The notes under the pieces: generated by a model
What the model saw: only the letters and a program-made list of their open reading frames with translations
The model's database searches: none
Told to the model about the DNA's origin: nothing
In this document: piece after piece, positions 26,251-27,096 of the stretch
Layout: each line of letters opens with the position of its first letter
Position numbering within the stretch: the stretch's first letter is position 1
Assembly (NCBI GenBank): GCA_946415375.1
Contig: CAMKSF010000014.1
Coordinates: 1-38,640, forward strand
From: an uncultured Clostridia bacterium
GTDB taxonomy: Bacteria; Bacillota; Clostridia; TANB77; CAG-508
Direction: 5' to 3'
Length of the DNA: 38,640 bases
Program-made: the position numbers and the translations under genes

Positions 26251-26318
26251 TATAGTAATTCTGGTGTTAAAGATAATAATTTCAAGACTTCTCCACCTAT
26301 TATTTCTCTAGCAACAGA
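26251..26318 (-). pseudogene. Relic duplication of the rplN 3' end
   Basis: This stretch aligns without gaps to 26729-26796, the last 22 codons of rplN, with roughly 80% identity by eye. It still reads VAREIIGG then EVLKLLSLTPELL and a TAG stop, against VARELRDG, EYLKILSLAPEVL and TAA in the intact gene. A TGA lies in frame a few codons upstream, so it is only a tail fragment. The direct repeats enclose about 410 bp carrying ORF96. This points to insertion or recombination at the 3' end of rplN. Confidence 0.85.
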
Positions 26319-26411
26319 CCTTCATTTTTTGTATTTACAATAGTTCATAGTTTTATTCATATGTCTATATATATATCTTTTTTCCTACTTATGCTTTTTA
26401 TTTTTCTATTT
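26319..26411. other. AT-rich gap after ORF96
   Basis: About 90 nt of T-rich sequence between the rplN relic and ORF96. I see no gene, terminator hairpin or promoter in it. Confidence 0.4.
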
Positions 26412-26702
26412 TTAGTCTCTTTCTATACCCATATTACCATAATAATCCAATGGTAATTCGCCTACATCAATATCTTCAGAATCCGAGAAAAATCCAGGAG
26501 TTTTTCCATATCCCAAAACCTCATCGCCTTTCTTTAATACAAACATCGTATCATCTAGGTTTTGTTGGGCACTAATTTCTTTTTTAAAATCTTTTCTTTT
26601 TTCTTCAGAAGTCTGTGCTTTCTTTTTACGTTCTTCCTCAATTTTCTTATCAATTTTTTCCATGCTTTTTTTCCAATTCTTTGATGGTCCATATAATCTC
26701 AT
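26412..26702 (-). CDS. Small unknown charged protein (ORF96) after rplN
   Basis: This 96-residue, very hydrophilic protein has a Lys/Glu-rich helical N-terminal half (KKSMEKIDKKIEEERKKKAQ), then FVLKKGDEVLGYGKTPGFF and an acidic tail. The VLKKGDEVLGYGKT stretch could be a small beta hairpin. The binding site AAAGGTAG is about 11 nt from the ATG, so it is weak. It lies between the intact rplN and the duplicated rplN tail and was probably acquired together with one of those copies. Family and function are unknown. Confidence 0.62.
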   Translation of the reverse strand: MRLYGPSKNWKKSMEKIDKKIEEERKKKAQTSEEKRKDFKKEISAQQNLDDTMFVLKKGDEVLGYGKTPGFFSDSEDIDVGELPLDYYGNMGIERD

Positions 26703-26727
26703 ATAAACTCAACTACCTTTCTTGTAA

Positions 26728-27096
26728 TTATAGTACTTCTGGCGCTAAAGATAAGATTTTTAAGTATTCTCCATCTCTTAATTCTCTAGCAACAGGTCCG
26801 AATATACGTGTACCTTTTGGTGTTTTGTCTTCTTTTATAATAACAGCTGCATTTTCATCAAATCTAATGTATGATCCGTCAGCTCTTCTTATAGGATTCT
26901 TAGTTCTAACAACAACTGCTTTTACTACATCACCTTTTTTAACAATTCCACCAGGTGTTGCTGTTTTAACAGAAGCAACTACTATATCACCAATTGTAGC
27001 TGTTCTTCTATATGATCCACCTAAACATCTGATAACCATTAGCTCTTTTGCTCCAGTGTTGTCAGCAACATTTAATCTTGTTTGTTGTTGTACCAT
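26728..27096 (-). CDS. rplN: 50S ribosomal protein uL14
   Basis: uL14 (122 residues) sits at the subunit interface and interacts with bL19. RLNVADNTGAKELMVIRCLG, KKGDVVKAVVVRTK and RIFGPVARELRD are conserved. AAGGAGGATACCAAAA precedes the ATG. A degenerate copy of its last 22 codons lies 478 bp downstream. The intact copy is followed by ORF96, not by rplX as usual. Confidence 0.98.
   Translation of the reverse strand: MVQQQTRLNVADNTGAKELMVIRCLGGSYRRTATIGDIVVASVKTATPGGIVKKGDVVKAVVVRTKNPIRRADGSYIRFDENAAVIIKEDKTPKGTRIFGPVARELRDGEYLKILSLAPEVL

What the first reader, a model, noticed from the sequence alone, without database searches (positions are those of the whole stretch)
26251..26796. Duplicated 3' end of rplN flanks a small cargo gene inside the spc operon
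26251-26318 is a gap-free, roughly 80% identical copy of the last 22 codons of rplN (26729-26796). The pair encloses about 410 bp with ORF96, and ORF111 follows the relic. A displaced tail next to an intact one is what is left when DNA integrates or recombines at a gene's 3' end and restores it. This would be an unusual accessory-gene site in a near-universal operon.
Basis: partly seen in the sequence, partly recalled or inferred. Interest (0 to 1): 0.72.

Follow-up and report, generated by a model that had tools for sequence, protein, structure and literature searches.

The report
Displaced gene tail between orphan genes
In one bacterial genome a decayed second copy of the end of a ribosomal-protein gene (rplN) lies between two small genes that match no known family; it is most likely a scar left when a new gene was spliced in behind rplN and pushed the old gene end and an older small gene downstream.

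Summary
On the minus strand, 26250-26318 matches the last 22 codons plus stop of rplN at 56 of 69 bases without gaps, far above shuffles. The copy is dead: 8 of its 9 changed codons change the amino acid. Of 103 rplN-rplX intervals read in the genus, only this one holds a second tail. ORF96 and ORF111 have relatives only among metagenome proteins. A sister species with 97% identical rplN (G150) has one small gene there, probably a distant ORF111 relative, and no tail copy; another (G058) has only a dispersed repeat. So rplN-ORF111-rplX is likely the older order, and ORF96 arrived with a fresh rplN end. Best mechanism: homology-facilitated illegitimate recombination, as proposed for Vibrio cholerae immunity-gene arrays (PMC5361080). 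A decayed site-specific element is less likely. No donor, no strain series and no protein function is known.

The parts
26728..27096 (-). rplN (ribosomal protein L14), intact, 122 aa, stop TAA
   Evidence: ORF list; rplN matches in 156 of 210 genus genomes
26728..26796 (-). rplN 3' end (last 22 codons plus stop), the intact copy
   Evidence: repeat D1; 56 of 69 bases match the displaced copy
26412..26702 (-). ORF96, orphan gene, likely the newcomer
   Evidence: 6 metagenome relatives at 71-89% identity; best family matches only E 0.0067 or worse
26319..26411 (-). 93-bp spacer; the presumed illegitimate junction is at its rplX-side end
   Evidence: read directly; junction inferred
26250..26318 (-). 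displaced, decayed copy of the rplN 3' end with stop TAG
   Evidence: stop TAG as in G150 and G058, own rplN has TAA
25902..26237 (-). ORF111, orphan gene, likely the older resident; its ribosome-binding site overlaps the stop of the displaced tail
   Evidence: 10 metagenome proteins, one a probable chimera; likely distant relative at the same site in G150
25561..25869 (-). rplX (ribosomal protein L24); 40 of the 41 bases just before it agree with G150

Best explanation
The segment at 26250-26318 is a decayed second copy of the rplN 3' end, and it is likely the old end of rplN, displaced when incoming DNA carrying an rplN end followed by ORF96 probably recombined with rplN on one side and was joined without homology on the other. 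Shown: the copy, its decay, its absence from the other 102 genus intervals read, and the arrangement rplN, one small gene, rplX without a copy in sister G150. Inferred: the older order rplN-ORF111-rplX, ORF96 as the newcomer, a donor from the same or a near species, and homology-facilitated illegitimate recombination as the mechanism. Both small genes would be read as part of the spc operon; what their proteins do is untested.
For: Copy real and dead. Unique among 103 genus intervals, best other score 15 against 43, and not seen in 79 intervals of named genomes. G150: one small gene, no copy, whose protein matches the ORF111 family better than all but 5 of 2000 shuffles, and 40 of 41 bases before rplX agree. 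The copy is nearest to the own tail among 109 tails, 12 of 66 differences, next 15; tree UFBoot 77. The stop TAG of the copy is that of G150 and G058, while the intact rplN has TAA, as expected if the copy is the old end. Its decay is of the order of unconstrained divergence from G150. A ComEC-type gene is present. Same arrangement proposed in PMC5361080.
Against: No donor sequence was seen. rplN shows no imported tract against G150 or G058 (differences even over its four quarters). The tail tree is weak, and two of the states of the copy (gcA, TAG) are G150-like while five are own-like. The kinship of the G150 gene with ORF111 rests on a 22-24 residue motif (hhalign probability 14%). In the published ICE cases some repeats also contain exactly the 3' end of the target gene, as here.
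Confidence: 0.5

Rival explanations
1. Mirror event: ORF96 was the resident behind rplN, and a fragment with an rplN tail, ORF111 and rplX came in, anchored in rplX, with its illegitimate end in the spacer behind ORF96.
For: The final sequence would be the same; the copy, ORF111 and the rplX leader share features with G150 (TAG stop, 40 of 41 bases).
Against: An ORF111-type gene at this site in G150 suggests that it was already resident; five of six sites that separate own from G150 tails are own-like in the copy.
Confidence: 0.15
2. Tandem duplication of the rplN end with the DNA behind it, inside one genome, followed by loss or replacement of parts, with no foreign DNA.
For: The copy is nearest to the own tail; in-place repeats do occur in this interval, as the repeated units in L015 show.
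Against: The DNA behind the two tails is unrelated: ORF96 and ORF111 show no kinship, so the second unit would have to be replaced exactly from the stop codon on.
Confidence: 0.13
3. Remnant of a site-specific element that integrated at the rplN 3' end and restored it, then lost its integrase.
For: Elements with tyrosine integrases use 3' ends of ribosomal genes (rplL, rpsI, rpmG), with repeats that can hold exactly the gene end (PMC4701971, passages); the genome has six tyrosine integrase genes.
Against: The insert is 409 bp plus the copy and has no integrase; none of the six integrases is on the window contig; no interval among the other 102 genus or 79 named loci is long enough for an integrase gene of about 300 codons (at most 431 bp). 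Published repeats are 12-54 bp; here 69 bp at 81%. Serine integrases were not searched for.
Confidence: 0.1
4. Assembly artefact: the copy or ORF96 was joined to the operon by the assembler.
For: The assembly is in 56 contigs, 92% complete; no second record of the junctions could be read.
Against: The longest exact word shared by the two tails is 14 bases, short for an assembler join; the ORF111-rplX side is backed by 40 of 41 bases shared with G150.
Confidence: 0.04

Closest known systems
Orphan immunity-gene arrays of Vibrio cholerae type VI clusters (PMC5361080; passages read)
   Same: Proposed homologous anchor upstream and illegitimate joining downstream; an old gene 3' end is shifted back behind a newcomer; older small genes stay in series.
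   Different: There the anchor is in the effector region and the cargo an effector-immunity pair; here the anchor gene is rplN and the small proteins match no family.
Displaced 3' ends at Rhs loci (known here only from a passage in PMC5361080)
   Same: Constant gene with strings of orphaned 3' regions behind it.
   Different: Rhs tips are variable toxin ends; the rplN end is conserved and the copy is dead.
[quoted passage not shown] passages read)
   Same: Short replaced or inserted DNA without a mobile element.
   Different: That study aligned three species genome-wide; its held text has no occurrence of 'ribosomal' or 'operon'.
ICEs integrated at 3' ends of rplL, rpsI, rpmG (PMC4701971; passages read)
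   Same: Direct repeat of a ribosomal-protein gene's 3' end, in some cases exactly the end of the gene.
   Different: No integrase or conjugation gene at the site, tiny insert, repeat longer (69 bp) and diverged (81%).

Membership tests
Scar of homology-facilitated illegitimate recombination | Newcomer DNA directly behind an intact gene that could serve as anchor | tested here: met
   ORF96 begins 25 bp behind the rplN stop
Scar of homology-facilitated illegitimate recombination | Displaced old end of the anchor gene behind the newcomer | tested here: met
   Copy at 26250-26318
Scar of homology-facilitated illegitimate recombination | Ancestral order without newcomer and without copy | tested here: inconclusive
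   G150 shows it if its 69-aa gene is an ORF111 relative, which is likely but weak
Scar of homology-facilitated illegitimate recombination | Donor-derived tract on the homologous side | tested here: inconclusive
   No excess divergence in rplN against G150 or G058; a same-species donor would leave none
Scar of homology-facilitated illegitimate recombination | Donor molecule or junction with short shared bases | not testable with these tools
   Metagenome contigs with ORF96 could not be fetched
Site-specific element (ICE/IME) at a gene 3' end | Integrase in the element | tested here: not met
   No such gene among the ORFs between the repeats; the six tyrosine integrases of the genome are on other contigs
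Site-specific element (ICE/IME) at a gene 3' end | Flanking direct repeat of the gene end | tested here: met
   69 bp, 56 matches; published range 12-54 bp
Site-specific element (ICE/IME) at a gene 3' end | Fuller relatives at the same site | tested here: not met
   Other intervals at most 431 bp in 102 genus loci and 176 bp in 79 named loci
Effector-immunity or Rhs array | Effector gene as the constant upstream gene | tested here: not met
   The upstream gene is rplN; the small proteins have no convincing match in Pfam, PHROGs, NCBIfam or PADLOC

The most novel reading that the evidence does not exclude
The end of rplN works as an integrase-free cassette port in the spc operon: its constant sequence anchors repeated additions, each newcomer taking first place behind rplN and pushing dead rplN tails and older, fast-changing orphan genes downstream, so that ribosomal-protein expression is lent to accessory genes.
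Probability: 0.17. Interest if true: 0.68.

Novelty: new variant of a known kind. Interest (0 to 1): 0.42.

Why it matters
Gene order in the spc operon is among the most constant in bacteria (general knowledge). Here small orphan genes would have entered it without a mobile element, keeping the essential gene intact and leaving a readable scar. If strain data confirm serial additions, it would show that a conserved operon can take up accessory genes by the same slip of recombination that was proposed for immunity arrays, and dead gene tails could be searched for as markers of the order of arrival. It also places two orphan families where they would be made at ribosomal-protein levels.

Tried and rejected
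ORF96 hits in four genus genomes (E 4.6e-4 to 8.4e-4): local tblastn at E 0.1 showed two of the four (L033, L035). The ORF at L033 looks like RecF (name from recall); the other three ORFs were not read. I judge all four coiled-coil chance. The viral locus L037 (29%) is judged the same.

AlphaFold models are poor (mean pLDDT 43.8 for ORF111, 56.7 for ORF96), so no fold search was made. PDB sequence searches gave nothing below E 0.3.

P0017, an ORF111 start joined to a phage-connector domain on a 555-bp contig, was left out of the alignments; it may be an assembly chimera.

Scan for other displaced gene ends: the first version (1492 tests) missed rplN because a longer antisense ORF displaced it from the gene list; three rows came out. 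The second used every ORF of at least 60 aa (3168 tests, one control at 24 or more) and gave 33 rows. I carried 22 into and left out 11 that lie in the same places. Of the 22, 14 have both copies inside one larger ORF; two (C3) lie at the ends of neighbouring ORFs, likely tandem paralogs; one is rplN; five (L252 twice, C1 twice, L246) are neither, and were looked at only as short leader-like or AT-rich sequence. So 'no second case' means no second clear case in 43% of the genome.

Single-linkage grouping of inserts lumped 44 of 48 intervals and was not used; those 48 had no match in the own-genome stretches searched. ORF96 and ORF111 are not related to each other. Ten loci with inserts gave no Rfam match.

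Paper searches for insertions in the spc operon listed no report of a displaced rplN tail; only open-licence papers and those terms were searched, and only titles and abstract starts were seen.

Full report
WHAT IS THERE. The region is read on the minus strand. Behind rplN (26728-27096) come ORF96 (26412-26702), a 93-bp spacer, a 69-bp copy of the rplN end (26250-26318), ORF111 (25902-26237) and rplX (25561-25869). The copy matches rplN at 56 of 69 bases with no gap; its score of 45 compares with a maximum of 19 in 1000 shuffles. It ends in a TAG stop that overlaps the GGAGG ribosome-binding site of ORF111. Similarity ends at the stop on one side and about codon 101 of rplN on the other. TGA stands in frame two codons before the copy. 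Of 22 codons 9 differ from rplN and 8 of these change the amino acid: a dead copy.

HOW RARE IT IS. rplN was found in 156 of 210 genus genomes. I read 104 of these: a first sample and then the nearest in rplN; with 6 genomes from other genera of the order this made 110 loci. One genus locus (L058) lacked rplX, leaving 103 genus intervals, own included, and 6 others. Genus intervals run from 21 to 431 bp, and 861 here. The best tail-like match in any other interval scores 15, against 43 here by the same measure. In the 101 genus intervals other than this and G150 the longest ORF on either strand is 59 aa, and every one above 42 aa is antisense. In 79 of 80 rplN loci from named genomes (one lacked rplX) the intervals are 15-176 bp and the best tail score is 15; these loci are at most 82% identical in rplN, many of them Clostridia metagenome assemblies. 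A scan of 762 kb of the own genome and 74 kb of the two sisters gave no second clear case of a displaced gene end (five weak rows not followed up).

THE TWO SMALL GENES. Among 5.8 billion proteins ORF96 has 6 relatives besides the window's own entry, and ORF111 has 10 entries, the nearest at 97% (its group may include the window's own protein); the contigs behind them are 555 to 6154 bases at most. Lengths are kept at 71-89% identity for ORF96 and 67-98% for the nine ORF111 entries that are not the probable chimera P0017; one of these (P0016, 122 aa) is longer and one (P0009, 102 aa) shorter. This speaks for real genes. Neither has a convincing relative in the 209 other genus genomes: ORF111 none, ORF96 four weak hits judged chance. 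Viral contigs gave none for ORF111 and one chance-like locus for ORF96; ORF111 was also not found in genome contigs, phages or plasmids, where ORF96 was not searched. No family library gives a convincing match. Their function is open. No promoter excess was seen (8 found, 8.1 expected), and no terminator-like site on the coding strand, so I infer that both are read with the operon.

SISTER SPECIES. G150 and G058 have rplN 97% identical to this one. G150 has one 69-aa gene with a good ribosome-binding site and no tail copy; G058 has a noncoding insert, a repeat with 6 matches in G058 (itself included), 13 in G074, 11 in G150 (one of them only the rplX leader) and none in this genome. The G150 protein resembles the ORF111 family in one motif, YYxGxDG...T...LTxxE (hhalign P 0.002, probability 14%, 24 columns; 5 of 2000 shuffles reach it), and not the ORF96 family (1124 of 2000). 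Behind its stop the same frame runs on to codons like the last ones of ORF111 (read by eye), and the last 41 bases before rplX agree at 40; further upstream the two intervals do not align above shuffles (13 against a mean of 14.8). So an ORF111-type gene probably stood behind rplN before the two species parted. The G150 gene has two metagenome relatives at 84 and 99%, and one weak hit (E 0.002) elsewhere in the genus.

WHEN AND FROM WHERE. Among 109 tails the copy is nearest to the own rplN (12 of 66 differences; next 15). At the six sites where own and G150 differ it agrees with own at five; at the sixth and at the stop codon it agrees with G150. A tree of 31 of the tails joins it to the own tail with UFBoot 77 and a long branch. 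Its divergence (18%) is of the order expected for unconstrained DNA since about the split from G150: four-fold sites differ at 83 of 570 in ribosomal genes, and in other genes of the window from about 20% (20 of 107) to 45% (38 of 84).

MECHANISM. The simplest account is that DNA from a near relative, carrying an rplN end followed by ORF96, paired with rplN on one side and was joined without homology just before codon 101 of the old tail on the other. The new rplN end is used; the old one is pushed downstream with ORF111 and decays. This is homology-facilitated illegitimate recombination, described in competent bacteria and, rarely, in E. coli conjugation (PMC3240628, abstract). It was proposed for V. 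cholerae immunity arrays, where an old effector 3' end is shifted back (PMC5361080, passages), and for small variable segments (PMC2884548, passages). The genome has a ComEC-type gene, which allows but does not show DNA uptake. No imported tract is visible in rplN, and no donor was found. The mirror event, a tandem duplication with later replacement, and a decayed site-specific element remain open. For the last, published repeats can hold exactly the end of a ribosomal gene (PMC4701971, passages), as here; but there is no integrase at the site and no fuller relative there (serine integrases not searched).

VERDICT. A real and unusual scar in a very conserved operon; a new variant of a known kind, with cargo of unknown function. 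A strain-level check would decide between a single accident and a recurrent port.

Noticed in passing
rplN-rplX intervals of the genus, loci L001-L129: 46 of 103 intervals hold noncoding inserts of 110-431 bp, several with strong hairpins; L015 has a unit repeated in place.
   Followed up: partly
L049:4765-4919 and matches in G058, G074, G150: The insert behind rplN in G058 is a dispersed repeat; several copies in G058, G074 and G150 lie within a few kb of rplN, around the ribosomal-protein operon, and none in this genome.
   Followed up: partly
window 184-411 (-): T-box leader (Rfam RF00230, 106 bits).
   Followed up: no
window 18639-20903 (-): Two neighbouring ORFs are 65-66% identical to G150 and 67-81% to G058, while the ORFs on both sides are about 90% or more.
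   Followed up: no
protein P0017: ORF111 start fused to a Phage_connect_2 domain on a 555-bp metagenome contig; chimera or a real link to a phage.
   Followed up: no
L252 (own contig C20), about 9529-9714 and about 0.9 kb away: A leader-like AT-rich sequence ending in ACCTCCAAAGA occurs twice before a long ORF.
   Followed up: no
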